From an uncultured Ruminococcus sp. (lineage in GTDB: Bacteria; Bacillota; Clostridia; Oscillospirales; Ruminococcaceae), in the NCBI GenBank assembly GCA_902780505.1, contig CACZFN010000011.1, forward strand, positions 1 through 64,000: a stretch of 64,000 bases of DNA, in the 5' to 3' direction. Made by a program: the position numbers and the translations under genes. Positions within the stretch are counted from its first letter, which is position 1; each line of letters begins with the position of its first letter. Below the pieces are notes generated by a model that did not search any database, was not told the DNA's origin, and saw only the letters and a list, made by a program, of their open reading frames with translations. Of the stretch, positions 46,435 through 52,908 are shown one piece after another.

Positions 46435-46650
46435 ATGGCAAAGAAAAAGAATTACTTCGGAAACGAGATCTCCCCTTCATGTTCTTACTGCACATTTGGT
46501 AATCGTTCGAGGGAAGGCAATAAGGTTCTTTGCGAAAAGCAAGGGCTTGTTGATGCGGATTACAGCTGTAAGAAATGGAATTATGATCCTATAAAAAGAA
46601 TTCCTAAAAAACAGCTTAATATTCCTAATCAGGAAGATGATGTTATTTAA
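46435..46650 (+). CDS. Small cysteine-containing protein of unknown function
   Basis: About 71 residues. The ATG at 46435 has AAAGGAG twelve bases upstream. Four cysteines occur as CSYC, then VLCEKQG and YSCKKWNYDP, a likely metal-binding knuckle. The ends are Lys-rich and acidic. I cannot name the function; homologues are probably widespread in related clostridia. It stands alone between the YlbJ-like gene and the GHL10 lipoprotein gene, which it faces. Confidence 0.75.
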   Translation: MAKKKNYFGNEISPSCSYCTFGNRSREGNKVLCEKQGLVDADYSCKKWNYDPIKRIPKKQLNIPNQEDDVI

Positions 46651-47931: not shown

Positions 47932-48008
47932 AATTATTCCTCCGTATATACTTTATTAAAGTATACGAAGAAATCCCGCAGAATATACAAAAAGCGGTGC
48001 ACAAAAGC

Positions 48009-48168
48009 GCAGCAGCGATATAGAAGCTTTTTAAGAATTATGCTTTGTGTTCGCTGCTGCTAAAAGAATAAATAATAAAGAAGAAAGAATAAAGAATAAT
48101 AAAGGCGGCGAAGGCGATACCTTCATTATTATTTCTTATTTATTCTTTCTTCTTTTTTCTTTTAGCAG
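48009..48168. repeat. Composite inverted-repeat element
   Basis: The 341-base gap between the GHL10 gene and gatB holds no gene. It contains a 10-bp perfect palindrome arm pair, GCAGCAGCGA (48009-48018) and TCGCTGCTGC (48051-48060). Overlapping it is a long AT-rich imperfect hairpin with arms of about 50 bases (48057-48105 and 48120-48168), from CTGCTAAAAGAA to TTCTTTTAGCAG. It could be a non-coding mobile element; no target duplication is evident. Confidence 0.65.
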
Positions 48169-48191
48169 GCGCTAAACTCAAGTAACAAAAA

Positions 48192-48222
48192 GACACTTCT
48201 GCCGTGATACAGCAGAAGTGTC
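48192..48222 (-). terminator. Terminator of the gatCAB operon
   Basis: Perfect 11-bp stem GACACTTCTGC/GCAGAAGTGTC, followed on the minus strand by TTTTTG. Confidence 0.9.
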
Positions 48223-48272
48223 GGATAAAAAACTTCTATATTGCGCCTGCGCTAATATGCACCGCTCAATTA

Positions 48273-51146
48273 TTATGGTGTAAGCCTGTTGATATCCCTC
48301 GGGAACAGCGAAGTTTCTCTTACATTCGGGAGTTCAAGCATCTTCATAAGAAGTCTTTCAAGGCCTATCCCAAGACCGCCATGAGGGGGAAGGCCATACT
48401 TATGTGCTTCAAGGTAGCTTTCAAAATCCTTAGGATCAAGTCCCTGTGCGAGCATTTTTTCTACCTGCTCGTTGTAATCATGGATCCTCTGACCTCCTGA
48501 TGTTATTTCAAGTCCCCTGAACAAGAGGTCAAACTTGTAAGCCTCTCTCGGATCTTCTCTTGAATTCATAGCGTAGAACGGAGGCTTTGAAGACGGGAAG
48601 TGTGTAACAAAGATAAAATCACTGTTATACTTTTCCTTTGCATACTTGCAAAGATTTACCTCGTCCTCGGGATCAAGGTCAAACTTCTTGCCTGTACCGC
48701 CGTTATCGCCCCTGAGCATTGTTATAGCATCAATGAACTTGATAGACGGTATCTCCGTTATCGTCGGGATATTGGCATCAAGGAAACGTATTTCGTCAGC
48801 GTAGTTTTCTTTAAGGTATTCGCAGATGAATTTAAGCATAGCTGTTTCCATTGCCATTACATCATACATGGAATCTATAAATCCCATTTCAAAATCAAGG
48901 CCGATATACTCATTAAGGTGCCTTGATGTTGCGTGCTTTTCAGCCCTGTATACAGGGGCTATTTCATAAACCCTGTTAAACACGCCGACCATTGCCTGTT
49001 TATAGAACTGCGGGGACTGGTTAAGGAACGCATTCTTCTGGAAATAATCAAGCTTGAATATGTTTGCGCCGCCCTCAGCACCCTGAGCAACTATTTTAGG
49101 TGAATGTATCTCGGTAAAGTTATTGTCCTGCATAAACTTATGCATTCCCTGAACTATACCTTCCTGAAGCCTGAAAGTTGCCTTTTCATATGGGTTTCTT
49201 AACGAAACGCTTCTGTTGTCAAGGTTTACATCAATAGTACAGTTGAGCCTGCCCTGTGATATTTTAAGCGGGTAATCATAGTGCGGTGCACTTATAAGCT
49301 GTATATCACTTAATACGACTTCTACGCCGTTATAGTCCTTTTCGTTTTCAGATACTTTACCCTTGACGTATACAAACTGCCCTTCCTTTATGCCCTCAAT
49401 GCTGTCTTTGCAGTTTTCCTGAGAGTAAACAGTCTGTATAACGCTGAAAGCTGTTCTGATAACTATAAACGAAACCTTGCCGTACTTTCTGACTCTGTGT
49501 ACAGTACCGCTGAATTCTATCTCCTTGCCGACGTTGTCAAGAATATCTGATATGGTTATTTCCTTTTTCAGCTTTTCAGGTGAAACCATAAGCATACTGC
49601 CGTCAGCAGAAGGAATATATTTATCATGGTTTACATATTCGGTAAGCTTTGCTGTACTGCCGATAACTTCTTCCTGTACTTCCTGCTTTGATCCATCGGT
49701 CGAAACTGATGACAAAGCACTCAGCTTTCTGTCAAGTATATCCTTTATGACCTTTGGTGTAGCAACGCCTTTCAGAGCCTTTGTACACTGCCCCATAATA
49801 AAGCCGAATACCTTCTGTTCGCCGTTAACATACTGGTTTACCTGTGCACTGTTTTTGGCAAGAACTTCGTCAATTACCTGTTCGGCCTTGCCGGTATCAA
49901 TGCTTATAAGCATTCCGTTTTGCTTTGCGATATCCTCAGGCTTTCCGCCCTTTTCTACCATTATCCTGAATATCGCCTTGGCATCGGATTTTGAGATCTT
50001 TTCTTCATCAGCAAGTTTTGCAAGTTCTGCAAAATCCTTTGCTGTAAAGGTTATATTTTCAGGATCGATCTCTCCCAAGTTGACACGGCGCATAAATTCA
50101 CCGAGAATAAGTACAGCAATACTCTTTGGATTATCATATGCCTTTACAGCGTCCTCAAAGAAATCAGAAATCGTCTTTGAATGGATAATAATATCCGCAT
50201 CAACAGCAGAAAGGCCGTATTTTTCGGTATACTTTGCAAATCTTTTATTTGGCAGTTCAGGGAGTTTTGCCTTGATCTCCTCAAGTTGTTTATCTGTCAG
50301 GTTTACCTGTAGAATATCCGGCTCGGGAAAATAGCGGTAGTCGTTGGCATTTTCCTTAGTACGCATTGATGTTGTCTTATCACGGTTAGCATCATAACGT
50401 CTTGTTTCCTGAACGACCTTTTTTCCGGCATCAAGCAAAAGTGCCTGTCTTCTTTCTTCGTACTTGATAGCACGCCCGACACTTTTTATAGAGTTGATAT
50501 TCTTTATTTCTGCACGTGTACCGAATTCCTTAGCATCAGGTTTCATTATAGAAATATTTACGTCACATCTGAGCGAGCCTTGTTCCATTTTACAGTCACA
50601 TACACCTGCATACTGCAACAGGAGTGATATCTGCTCGACATATGCCATAGCTTCCTCAGCTGACGACATATCAGGCTCTGAAACTATTTCGATAAGCGGG
50701 ATACCGCATCTGTTATAGTCAGCAAGCGAAACACCGTTGAAATCGTCATGAACGAGCTTACCTGCATCTTCTTCAAGGTGGATATGATTTATTCTGATGT
50801 CTTTTTTCTTGCCGTTTACATCAATAGTTATAGCACCGGGCCCTATAATCGGATAATAAAGCTGGGATATCTGATATGCCTTAGGCAGGTCGGGATAGAA
50901 ATAGTTCTTTCTGTCAAAAACAGAGAACTTGTTTATCTCACAGCCAAGTGCATAGCCTGCTTTTACAGCATATTCCACAGCAGTCTGGTTTATGATCGGG
51001 AGTGTGCCCGGCATACCCGTACAAACAGGGCAGACTCTCGTGTTAGGTGCACCACCGAATTCGGCGGAACAGTTACAGAATATCTTAGTTTTTGTCAAAA
51101 GCTCGGCATGGATCTCAAGACCTATGACGGTTCTGTATTCACTCAT
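48273..51146 (-). CDS. gatB-aspS: GatB fused to an archaeal-type aspartyl-tRNA synthetase
   Basis: One uninterrupted 957-residue frame. Residues 1-476 are GatB, the kinase/amidotransferase subunit of GatCAB: VIGLEIHAEL, the zinc cysteines 24, 26, 39 and 42, and the YqeY-like tail ending ILDRKLSAL. A Ser/Gln/Lys-rich linker (about 477-525) leads to an OB-fold anticodon-binding domain (about 528-620). A class IIb catalytic domain (640-957) follows, with motif 2 VYEIAPVYRAEKHATSRHLNE, the ITSGGQRIHD segment and motif 3 GIGLERLL. The ending LFPRDINRLTP and PPHGG match archaeal-type AspRS, not AsnRS. GGAGG precedes the ATG. It follows gatA by 17 bases. It probably makes Asp-tRNA(Asn) and amidates it in one complex. 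Confidence 0.93.
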   Translation of the reverse strand: MSEYRTVIGLEIHAELLTKTKIFCNCSAEFGGAPNTRVCPVCTGMPGTLPIINQTAVEYAVKAGYALGCEINKFSVFDRKNYFYPDLPKAYQISQLYYPIIGPGAITIDVNGKKKDIRINHIHLEEDAGKLVHDDFNGVSLADYNRCGIPLIEIVSEPDMSSAEEAMAYVEQISLLLQYAGVCDCKMEQGSLRCDVNISIMKPDAKEFGTRAEIKNINSIKSVGRAIKYEERRQALLLDAGKKVVQETRRYDANRDKTTSMRTKENANDYRYFPEPDILQVNLTDKQLEEIKAKLPELPNKRFAKYTEKYGLSAVDADIIIHSKTISDFFEDAVKAYDNPKSIAVLILGEFMRRVNLGEIDPENITFTAKDFAELAKLADEEKISKSDAKAIFRIMVEKGGKPEDIAKQNGMLISIDTGKAEQVIDEVLAKNSAQVNQYVNGEQKVFGFIMGQCTKALKGVATPKVIKDILDRKLSALSSVSTDGSKQEVQEEVIGSTAKLTEYVNHDKYIPSADGSMLMVSPEKLKKEITISDILDNVGKEIEFSGTVHRVRKYGKVSFIVIRTAFSVIQTVYSQENCKDSIEGIKEGQFVYVKGKVSENEKDYNGVEVVLSDIQLISAPHYDYPLKISQGRLNCTIDVNLDNRSVSLRNPYEKATFRLQEGIVQGMHKFMQDNNFTEIHSPKIVAQGAEGGANIFKLDYFQKNAFLNQSPQFYKQAMVGVFNRVYEIAPVYRAEKHATSRHLNEYIGLDFEMGFIDSMYDVMAMETAMLKFICEYLKENYADEIRFLDANIPTITEIPSIKFIDAITMLRGDNGGTGKKFDLDPEDEVNLCKYAKEKYNSDFIFVTHFPSSKPPFYAMNSREDPREAYKFDLLFRGLEITSGGQRIHDYNEQVEKMLAQGLDPKDFESYLEAHKYGLPPHGGLGIGLERLLMKMLELPNVRETSLFPRDINRLTP

Positions 51147-51163: not shown

Positions 51164-52615
51164 TCAAAGCTTCGGCTTTTTAACATCAAAGCCGTTTTCA
51201 AAAGCCGAGGAAACCTGCAAGATCGTTGCCTCGTCAAACTTCCTGCCAATTACAGACATACCTATCGGCATACCGTCTGCATTATAACCGCAAGTCGTAT
51301 TTACAGCAGGAAGTCCTGCAATATTGACTGTTACCGTGCATATGTCAGCCTGATACATCTTAACAGGATCATCAACCTTTTCGTCAGGCCTGTATGCCAC
51401 AGAAGGTGTTGAAGGCGTAAGGATCACATCACACTTTGAGAATATATCATTGTATTCTTTTCTTATAAGCTGTCTCAGACCAAGTGCTTTTCTATAGTAA
51501 GCATCATAGTAACCGCTTGAAAGACAATAGTTACCAAGCAGTATTCTTCTCTTGACTTCGTCACCGAAGCCCTCGGAACGGGACTTGATTATAAGTTCTT
51601 CGTAGCTGTCAGCTTCAGCAGTTCTGTGACCGTACTTGATGCCGTCATACCTTGAAAGGTTAGATGCCGCCTCAGCACACGCAAGGATATAATAGCAGGG
51701 AATAGCATATTTAAGTGAAGGCATAGAGCAGTTCACAAGCTCAGCACCCATTTTCTCATATTCCTTTGCGGCATTCATTACAGAAGCTTTGACATCATCA
51801 TCAATGCCCTCAGCAAAGAATTCAGCGGGCAGTGCTATTTTCATACCCTTCAAACTTCCGCCTATCTTAGCAGTAAAATCTGTCACGGGCTGTTTTTCGG
51901 TAGTGCCGTCGTGGTGGTCTGCACCGCATATCGCATTAAGGATAATACCGCAGTCAAGGCTATCCTTGCCAACAGGACCTATCTGGTCAAGTGACGATGC
52001 AAAAGCCACAAGCCCGAACCTTGATACCCTGCCGTATGTAGGCTTGATACCGGTAACGCCGCAGAATGCAGCAGGCTGTCTGATGGAGCCGCCCGTATCA
52101 GAGCCAAGTGCCGCAGCACAAAGATCGGCAGCAACAGCCGCAGCTGAACCGCCCGAAGATCCCCCCGGAACACAAGCTTTATTATAAGGGTTCTTTGTCT
52201 TTTTAAAAGCGGATGTCTGTGTAGAGCCGCCCATCGCAAACTCGTCCATAGAAACCTTACCGAGCATAACGATATCCATTTCGTCAAGCTTATCCATAGC
52301 AGTGGCATTATACGGCGGTATGAAGTTTTCAAGAATATTAGACGAGCAGGTCGTTTTTACCCCAACCGTACATATATTATCCTTGATAGCCATAGGGATA
52401 CCTGTAAGTGGTTCTGCTTTGCCGTCATTTATTCTTTTCTGTGCCTTTTCTGCCTGAGCAAGCGCCTTTTCTTTGGTCAAGGTGATATAGCAGTCAAGCT
52501 CACCGTCATATTTTTCTATTCTGTCCAGATAGCATTCAGTCACTTCTTTTACAGATATATCCTTTTTGTCATATGCTTCACGAAGCGCTGAAATTTTCAT
52601 TGTCTGTATATCCAT
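51164..52615 (-). CDS. gatA: Asp-tRNA(Asn)/Glu-tRNA(Gln) amidotransferase subunit A
   Basis: A 483-residue amidase-signature glutaminase that frees ammonia for GatB. Ser-cisSer-Lys residues are visible in IPMAIKDNICT (Lys) and LGSDTGGSIRQPAAF (Ser), with the signature PGGSSGGSAAAVAADL between. GGGGAGG five bases before the ATG at 52615 sets the start; the frame to 52633 overlaps gatC. It lies between gatC and the gatB fusion. Confidence 0.97.
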   Translation of the reverse strand: MDIQTMKISALREAYDKKDISVKEVTECYLDRIEKYDGELDCYITLTKEKALAQAEKAQKRINDGKAEPLTGIPMAIKDNICTVGVKTTCSSNILENFIPPYNATAMDKLDEMDIVMLGKVSMDEFAMGGSTQTSAFKKTKNPYNKACVPGGSSGGSAAAVAADLCAAALGSDTGGSIRQPAAFCGVTGIKPTYGRVSRFGLVAFASSLDQIGPVGKDSLDCGIILNAICGADHHDGTTEKQPVTDFTAKIGGSLKGMKIALPAEFFAEGIDDDVKASVMNAAKEYEKMGAELVNCSMPSLKYAIPCYYILACAEAASNLSRYDGIKYGHRTAEADSYEELIIKSRSEGFGDEVKRRILLGNYCLSSGYYDAYYRKALGLRQLIRKEYNDIFSKCDVILTPSTPSVAYRPDEKVDDPVKMYQADICTVTVNIAGLPAVNTTCGYNADGMPIGMSVIGRKFDEATILQVSSAFENGFDVKKPKL

Positions 52616-52629
52616 ACTTACCTCCCCGA

Positions 52630-52908
52630 TCATTCTACGACTTTAGGCACAACAAAGCAGTTCTTTGAATTAACAGCATTTGAAAGCACCTTTTCTGTCG
52701 GCATTGAAGGCATTATTTCATCCCGCCTTAGCCCGTCGAGGTAAACATTATGGTTATCAAGATGTGCATCATAGGTTATATCTATATCTTTAATAGTATC
52801 CATAAGCTCCATAATGCTTGTCATCTCACCTGCTGTTTTGGCAAGCTTTTCGTCGGTATATTCAAGCTTGCTTAAATCAGCCAAGTATTTTACGGTATTT
52901 AAGTCCAT
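52630..52908 (-). CDS. gatC: Asp-tRNA(Asn)/Glu-tRNA(Gln) amidotransferase subunit C
   Basis: This 92-residue subunit wraps around GatA and GatB to stabilise the complex. It starts VKYLADLSKLEYTDEKLAKTAGEMTSI-like (shown here only in part: KYLADLSKLEYTDEKL) and has the LRRDEIMPSMPTEKVLSNA ending. GGAGG precedes the ATG by six bases. It is the first gene of the gat operon, behind the promoter at 52961-52989. Confidence 0.95.
   Translation of the reverse strand: MDLNTVKYLADLSKLEYTDEKLAKTAGEMTSIMELMDTIKDIDITYDAHLDNHNVYLDGLRRDEIMPSMPTEKVLSNAVNSKNCFVVPKVVE

What the first reader, a model, noticed from the sequence alone, without database searches (positions are those of the whole stretch)
48273..51146. 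GatB fused to an archaeal-type AspRS: a covalent transamidosome
The frame runs without a stop through all of GatB, a linker of about 50 residues and a complete archaeal-type AspRS, with no ribosome site near the joint. GatC and GatA precede it in the same operon. The non-covalent version of this pathway is well known: a non-discriminating AspRS charges tRNA(Asn) with Asp and GatCAB amidates it. Here the synthetase and the tRNA-binding amidotransferase subunit would be a single chain, so the misacylated tRNA need not be released. That the AspRS part is non-discriminating or tRNA(Asn)-specific is inference. I do not recall a described enzyme of this layout.
Basis: partly seen in the sequence, partly recalled or inferred. 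Interest (0 to 1): 0.93.

Follow-up and report, generated by a model that had tools for sequence, protein, structure and literature searches.

The report
Asparagine-tRNA makers joined in one chain
In some bacteria related to Ruminococcus, an enzyme that likely loads aspartate onto the asparagine tRNA and a subunit of the enzyme that would then turn that aspartate into asparagine are encoded as one continuous protein, so the wrongly loaded tRNA would likely be corrected without being let go.

Summary
Confirmed: on the minus strand, 51146-48273 is one uninterrupted 957-codon frame for complete GatB, a linker of about 40-50 residues and a complete archaeal-type AspRS. It lies behind gatC and gatA; the operon starts have strong ribosome sites, the joint has none. 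Not an artefact: 116 of the 120 listed protein hits are full length at 66-100% identity, and 24 sampled genomes of one family carry the fusion. Unfused relatives have gatC-gatA-gatB-aspS side by side, sometimes in register with one stop between. AsnRS is missing in 22 of 24 fused genomes. The fused protein is thus the likely sole route to Asn-tRNA(Asn) in most carriers: a covalent form of the known Asn-transamidosome. tRNA(Asn) charging and channelling are inferred; of two recalled marker residues one fits, one does not. The fused state is not one clade (at least two changes), though most linkers look related. Named public records mostly say plain GatB. No description was found in the open-access library searched. 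Closest precedent: an NCBIfam AspRS-GatC fusion model.

The parts
48273..51146 (-). gatB::aspS2 fusion gene, 957 aa
50283..51131 (-). GatB catalytic domain (residues 6-288)
   Evidence: PF02934, 406 bits
49722..50165 (-). GatB tail domain GatB_Yqey (residues 328-475)
   Evidence: PF02637, 129 bits
49566..49715 (-). linker between the family models (residues 478-527): acidic low-confidence part, then a conserved short motif
   Evidence: pLDDT under 50 at 482-495; linkers of 24 fused genomes; pN below pS in 4 of 4 pairs
49611..49649 (-). conserved motif in the linker, residues 500-512 (N506, Y510, P512 nearly invariant in 66 sequences)
49293..49514 (-). OB-fold anticodon-binding domain of AspRS (residues 545-618)
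   Evidence: PF01336
48294..49232 (-). class II synthetase core of AspRS (residues 639-951)
   Evidence: PF00152, 270 bits
51164..52633 (-). gatA (489 aa as listed; the likelier start is the second ATG at 52615)
   Evidence: TIGR00132 601 bits, cut-off 481; SD energies
52630..52908 (-). gatC, 92 aa
   Evidence: TIGR00135 48.3 bits, cut-off 47.1; PF02686
52961..52989 (-). promoter-like site before gatC (10 of 12 matches); a consensus match only
   Evidence: 29 such sites found in the region, 15.6 expected
48192..48222 (-). terminator-like hairpin of 14 pairs with a T run, directly behind the fusion gene; a pattern match only
   Evidence: 7 such sites found in the region, 5.0 expected

Best explanation
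One gene encodes GatB and an archaeal-type aspartyl-tRNA synthetase in a single chain, which would likely charge tRNA(Asn) with aspartate and, with GatA and GatC, would amidate it in place: a predicted covalent Asn-transamidosome. Shown: the single frame, the gatC-gatA-gatB::aspS2 order, its conservation in related genomes, the absence of AsnRS and GlnRS from this genome, and the presence of a separate bacterial-type AspRS and of only one GatB. Inferred: the bacterial AspRS supplies Asp-tRNA(Asp), while the fused AspRS makes Asp-tRNA(Asn); the tRNA end then moves to the tethered GatB/GatA sites and leaves as Asn-tRNA(Asn), without Asp-tRNA(Asn) being offered to the ribosome. Because the only GatB is fused, every GatCAB of the cell would carry an AspRS at 1:1, would likely pair up through the AspRS dimer, and would also have to amidate Glu-tRNA(Gln) made by the single GluRS.
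For: Both halves pass curated cut-offs as complete family members. Operon with gatC and gatA, strong SD at its starts, none at the joint. The linker is under protein-level constraint: pN 0.24-0.37 against pS 0.71-0.86 in four pairs. The AspRS half is nearest among solved structures to T. thermophilus AspRS2, the non-discriminating AspRS of a transamidosome entry (1n9w/3kfu). Own genome: no AsnRS, bacterial-type AspRS present, one GatB, GluRS but no GlnRS. AsnRS over its cut-off in 2 of 24 fused genomes; 17 of the 19 fused genomes at least 90% complete lack it. Eight full-length tRNA(Asn) genes from five relatives (four fused, one unfused) have U1-A72, the pair that PMC9976931 (passage) names as the signal for amidation; own tRNA(Asp) has G1-C72. 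PMC6523644 (passage): where bacteria hold both types, the bacterial AspRS is discriminating and AspRS2 non-discriminating.
Against: No activity was measured. The K85-equivalent is Tyr605, not the Pro seen in T. thermophilus AspRS2; Pro stands there in 2 of 24 fused genomes and 10 of 66 aligned proteins. AsnB is present, so free Asn does not depend on this route. Two fused genomes also have AsnRS. Unfused relatives without AsnRS exist (11 of 22 in the near-kin set, some of them incomplete), so fusion is not required for the pathway. tRNA(Asn) was not found in the own draft. Two fused genomes (G403, G496) have an internal ATG with a fair SD. The model does not fix the arrangement of the halves (pTM 0.48).
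Confidence: 0.72

Rival explanations
1. The fusion is a near-neutral product of a lost stop codon between two adjacent in-register genes: the halves work as they do in unfused bacteria and the tether adds nothing.
For: Unfused relatives have gatB and aspS adjacent, in several cases in register with a single stop between. The fused state came or went at least twice. Half of the unfused near kin (11 of 22) also lack AsnRS.
Against: The fused state has been kept across many genera (22 of 57 AspRS2 genomes in the family sample), with a linker of narrow length (51-68 residues in the slices) and a motif kept in both fused groups. This is suggestive, not decisive.
Confidence: 0.2
2. The chain is made as one but cut, or a second protein starts inside it, so that the cell holds normal GatB and AspRS.
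For: Low-confidence acidic linker. Internal ATG with SD energy of -6 or better in 2 of 24 fused genomes.
Against: In the window the best internal start has -2.3 kcal/mol; median over fused genomes -3.2 against -6.6 for unfused genes. Linker motif conserved.
Confidence: 0.06
3. The fused AspRS is discriminating and serves tRNA(Asp); the bacterial-type AspRS is the one that charges tRNA(Asn).
For: Tyr instead of Pro at the K85 position. Bacterial-type AspRSs that charge tRNA(Asn) are known (PMC4206432, passages).
Against: His at the W26 position, as in T. thermophilus AspRS2, in 22 of 24 fused genomes; gene order and fusion with GatB; the division of labour in T. thermophilus and D. radiodurans (PMC6523644, passage).
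Confidence: 0.08
4. Assembly or sequencing error.
For: The window is from a 51-contig draft.
Against: Same full-length frame in independent genomes, among them one of 2 contigs (G394) and one of 7 (G600), and in the protein collection.
Confidence: 0.005

Closest known systems
Asn-transamidosome of Thermus thermophilus (PDB 3kfu: GatCAB with archaeal-type non-discriminating AspRS2)
   Same: The same kinds of parts: GatB and an archaeal-type AspRS; its AspRS2 is the nearest solved relative of the window's AspRS half.
   Different: There GatB and AspRS are separate chains in the database entries; here one chain. The window's organism lacks AsnRS and GlnRS; PMC4206432 (abstract and passages) says T. 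thermophilus has both.
NCBIfam PRK12820 / NF009460, bifunctional aspartyl-tRNA synthetase / amidotransferase subunit C
   Same: An AspRS in one chain with a subunit of the same amidotransferase.
   Different: Bacterial-type AspRS joined to GatC. The window's protein scores 88.9 against a cut-off of 1379; its AspRS is archaeal-type and its partner is GatB.
gatC-gatA-gatB-aspS operons of unfused relatives (for example G478, G471, G317)
   Same: Same genes, same order.
   Different: A stop codon and a start of its own for aspS.
GlnRS/YqeY-domain fusion, NCBIfam NF011291
   Same: A synthetase in one chain with the domain that forms the GatB tail.
   Different: GlnRS and no GatB catalytic domain; 109.9 bits against a cut-off of 681.
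GatC-GatA fusion mutants of Mycobacterium smegmatis (PMC7541841, passages)
   Same: A fusion within the same pathway.
   Different: Arose by mutation in a selection, joins GatC to GatA, and raised Asn-to-Asp errors.

Membership tests
GatB (amidotransferase subunit B) | Catalytic and tail domains; curated family score | tested here: met
   626 bits, cut-off 414; PF02934 and PF02637
Archaeal-type AspRS, aspartate--tRNA(Asn) ligase NF003483 | Curated family score; no GAD insertion domain | tested here: met
   534.6 bits, cut-off 353; no GAD domain among the Pfam matches
Non-discriminating AspRS | Anticodon-domain marker residues: His at W26, Pro at K85 of the T. kodakarensis numbering (recalled) | tested here: inconclusive
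   His550 fits, Tyr605 does not; the second position varies in fused and unfused proteins alike
Non-discriminating AspRS | Aspartylation of tRNA(Asn) | not testable with these tools
   needs an assay
Asn-transamidosome | GatC, GatA, GatB, AspRS and a tRNA(Asn) with U1-A72 encoded | tested here: inconclusive
   All four protein parts are present. U1-A72 in 8 of 8 full-length tRNA(Asn) genes from 5 relatives, one of them of the same genus; tRNA(Asn) not found in the own draft
Asn-transamidosome | AspRS and GatCAB act as one particle on tRNA(Asn) | not testable with these tools
   Covalent joint of AspRS and GatB shown; particle and channelling need biochemistry
AsnRS | Curated family score | tested here: not met
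   253.5 bits, cut-off 414
PRK12820 AspRS-GatC fusion | Bacterial AspRS with GatC in one chain; curated family score | tested here: not met
   88.9 bits, cut-off 1379; GatC is a separate gene

The most novel reading that the evidence does not exclude
A single-chain asparaginyl-tRNA factory: the fused AspRS has become a dedicated aspartyl-tRNA(Asn) synthetase whose product is never released, so that GatC, GatA and GatB-AspRS together stand in for AsnRS; the tether makes every GatCAB of the cell an obligate AspRS-bearing dimer, even when it serves tRNA(Gln), and the conserved linker motif docks the two halves without tRNA.
Probability: 0.3. Interest if true: 0.88.

Novelty: new variant of a known kind. 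Interest (0 to 1): 0.72.

Why it matters
The transamidosome has been proposed to keep Asp-tRNA(Asn) from causing errors, but in mycobacteria it assembles only with the tRNA, and its stability seems to tune fidelity (PMC8406222, passages). A natural covalent version, present in some species and split in near relatives that also lack AsnRS, gives matched pairs for testing directly whether channelling matters. It also offers a construct of fixed 1:1 make-up for structural work, and shows that public records named plain GatB in Ruminococcus-type bacteria can hide a synthetase (7 of the 9 named rows).

Tried and rejected
T-box control: no Rfam family reached its gathering score anywhere in the window; lower scores were not looked at. 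A pattern search for tRNA(Asn) in the own draft gave zero, but my pattern had a wrong loop spacing, so that zero means nothing; an Rfam tRNA search (43 hits, of which 4, all 82-84 nt long, were not typed) and a corrected pattern replaced it. Structure model of the chain: mean pLDDT 74.3, pTM 0.48 from 66 close sequences; not used for the arrangement of the halves, and no fold search was run. Link between fusion and missing AsnRS: Fisher p 0.003 for near kin, 0.0003 with five more distant rows, but the rows are related and only 2 independent pairs exist, with no significant trend, so this is no test of cause; several rows are incomplete genomes. Plasmids: 0 of 115 matching records cover 80% of the query. 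Single origin of the fusion: one clade is rejected (log-likelihood 53.9 lower, p-AU 0.002), yet 6 of 8 group-A linkers score above nearly all shuffles with a model of 15 group-B linkers (five with 0 of 500, G496 with 6 of 500; G447 with 259 and G420 with 499 do not), so one fusion with later splits, or two fusions, stay open; the motif pattern in that script was written after seeing the linkers. Rows left out: 9 of 76 from the AspRS tree (G397, cut by its contig; G568; seven divergent sequences L126-L132); 5 of 52 from the GatB+AspRS tree (G397, L092, L097, L120, L125); alignment A1 holds the window and 65 of the 120 listed proteins.
Full report
WHAT IS THERE. The stretch 48273-51146 holds one open frame on the minus strand, 957 codons from an ATG. 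Pfam places GatB_N at 6-288 and the GatB tail domain at 328-475, then an OB fold at 545-618 and the class II synthetase core at 639-951. NCBIfam scores both halves over their cut-offs: GatB 626 bits (cut-off 414), aspartate--tRNA(Asn) ligase 534.6 (cut-off 353); as AsnRS it scores 253.5, under the cut-off of 414. gatA and gatC lie just upstream on the same strand. The starts of gatC, gatA (second ATG) and gatB have strong Shine-Dalgarno pairing (-9.3, -11.4, -10.9 kcal/mol); the three in-frame start codons between residues 470 and 545 have -1.5, -1.2 and -2.3. A 14-pair terminator-like hairpin stands directly behind the gene, though such patterns are not rarer in shuffles (7 found, 5.0 expected). 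Within the genus the linker changes more at synonymous than at replacement sites in all four pairs compared (pN 0.24-0.37, pS 0.71-0.86), so it is read as protein.

IT IS NOT AN ARTEFACT. The protein search returned 1024 relatives under E 1e-3 and listed 120; 116 of the 120 cover 99-100% of the query, at 66-100% identity, one of them on a contig of 1.3 Mb. Nine of the 120 rows bear a source name: seven GatB (for example in Ruminococcus sp. Marseille-P6503 and YE71), one hypothetical protein (Hominimerdicola), one partial record called aspartate--tRNA(Asn) ligase. In the genus, 5 of 7 genomes have the AspRS match over the cut-off and all 5 are fused; the other two are 76% and 58% complete. In a sample of 247 genomes of the family, 57 have an archaeal-type AspRS over the cut-off, and 22 of those 57 are fused; with G395 and G397 from the genus search this makes 24. 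In a sample of 391 genomes of the class, 57 have this AspRS type and only the window's own is in a long frame. NCBI places two named carriers, Hominimerdicola and Ruminococcus sp. YE71, in the Oscillospiraceae.

SURROUNDINGS IN THE GENOME. G000 (2.82 Mb, 51 contigs, 98.6% complete) has four PF00152 matches: a bacterial-type AspRS (731 bits to TIGR00459), LysRS, the fusion, and a weak match inside HisRS. So no AsnRS is seen. There is one GatB_N match, the fusion, and one tRNA-synt_1c gene, which scores as GluRS (512.6 bits), so no GlnRS is seen. The other four fused genomes of the genus have frames of 592-627 aa with the split match pattern of the bacterial-type AspRS. AsnRS is over its cut-off in 2 of 24 fused genomes, G496 and G566 of one genus; of the 19 fused genomes at least 90% complete, 17 lack it. 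Of the 22 unfused near relatives in the tree, 11 have it.

tRNA. Own tRNA(Gln) genes have U1-A72, own tRNA(Asp) has G1-C72 (sequences). tRNA(Asn) was not found in the own draft: of 43 Rfam tRNA hits 39 were typed and none is tRNA(Asn), the other four are 82-84 nt long, and the corrected pattern gave no GTT anticodon there; it may lie in an assembly gap. Eight full-length tRNA(Asn) genes from five related genomes (four fused, of which one of the same genus, and one unfused) all have U1-A72 and G73. PMC9976931 (passage) states that U1-A72 directs amidation of Asp-tRNA(Asn), and that G1-C72 and U20a prevent it on tRNA(Asp).

HOW IT AROSE. In unfused relatives gatC, gatA, gatB and aspS mostly lie in the same order (in some the aspS stands elsewhere). 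In G478, G471, G510 and, in another family, G944, the gatB and aspS frames are in register with one stop between them, and aspS has a start of its own. The GatB+AspRS tree (47 rows: 23 fused, 18 unfused, 6 outgroup) needs at least two changes of the fused state, none of 200 bootstrap trees shows one, and a single fused clade is rejected (p-AU 0.002); a 15-row group is a branch of the best tree with weak support (80/65), and an 8-row group is not rejected (p-AU 0.71). Each group has an unfused neighbour (G440; G471 with G551) in the AspRS tree; the gatB of G440 is itself split over two frames in its assembly. Yet the linkers of the two groups share a motif round N506-Y510-P512, and 6 of 8 group-A linkers match a model of the group-B linkers better than nearly all shuffles, two do not. 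So either one fusion with later splits or two fusions. Ribosome sites fit the split: 13 of 28 unfused genes have an ATG with SD energy of -6 or better, against 2 of 24 fused (G403, G496, where an internal start cannot be excluded).

HOW IT LIKELY WORKS. The parts are those of the T. thermophilus Asn-transamidosome, whose AspRS2 is the nearest solved relative. PMC6523644 (passage) says that in T. thermophilus and D. [quoted passage not shown] the same division of labour is inferred here. In mycobacteria the particle forms only with tRNA, and trehalose, which stabilises GatCAB and the particle, lowers errors of this pathway (PMC8406222, passages); a tether would give such stability without tRNA. 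Against this reading stands Tyr605, where T. thermophilus AspRS2 has Pro; the position varies widely in fused and unfused proteins alike, while His550 fits in 22 of 24 fused genomes. Since the only GatB is fused, the same particle must also serve tRNA(Gln). These steps are inference.

IN PRINT. Searches of the held open-access library for GatB with AspRS and fusion or fused, AspRS-GatC fusion, Ruminococcus with GatB, synthetase gene fusions with GatB and direct compound names (no paper) gave no description of this layout in the listings. I saw search listings, and passages of PMC4206432, PMC8762117, PMC7541841, PMC9976931, PMC6523644, PMC8406222, PMC3532385 and PMC4394549; I read no paper whole. 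Most subscription journals are not held. NCBIfam lists a bifunctional bacterial AspRS-GatC family, so a covalent AspRS-amidotransferase joint as such has a precedent; GatB with an archaeal-type AspRS appears to be a new variant.

Noticed in passing
L246:2690-4897 (Oscillospiraceae MAG SIG502): A bacterial-type AspRS joined to GatC in one 736-aa frame, followed by gatA and gatB: another covalent AspRS-amidotransferase joint, 642 bits to PRK12820 but under its cut-off of 1379.
   Followed up: partly
window 47993-48266: Directly behind the fusion gene, 41-nt inverted arms (83% complementary) enclose a second palindrome with 56-nt arms (80%) and the terminator hairpin: looks like a small MITE-like element.
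   Followed up: partly
L118 (G496) and L119 (G566): The two fused genomes that also hold an AsnRS over the cut-off, both of one genus: both routes to Asn-tRNA(Asn) would coexist.
   Followed up: no
L126-L132 (G229, G293, G528, G537, G477, G577, G410): Seven divergent archaeal-type AspRS proteins in the same family with Glu/Asp at the W26 and Lys/Arg at the K85 position; 6 of 7 genomes have AsnRS: possibly discriminating enzymes.
   Followed up: no
window 49611-49649 (-): Short conserved motif round N506, Y510 and P512 in an otherwise variable acidic linker; role unknown.
   Followed up: partly
window 52633-52615 (-): gatA likely starts at the second ATG (52615), which has the strong ribosome site (-11.4 against -1.4 kcal/mol).
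   Followed up: yes
L124 (G510): A genome of the same genus code as the fused G406 has gatB and aspS in register but separated by one TAA and a start of aspS; in the trees the two do not group.
   Followed up: partly
window 46435-46650 (+): Small cysteine-containing ORF of 71 aa with no Pfam match.
   Followed up: no
L007:901-2451 (own genome, C31): A second asparagine-synthase-like protein of 517 aa, matching the AsnB model only from position 104 on and under its cut-off (252.7 against 267).
   Followed up: no
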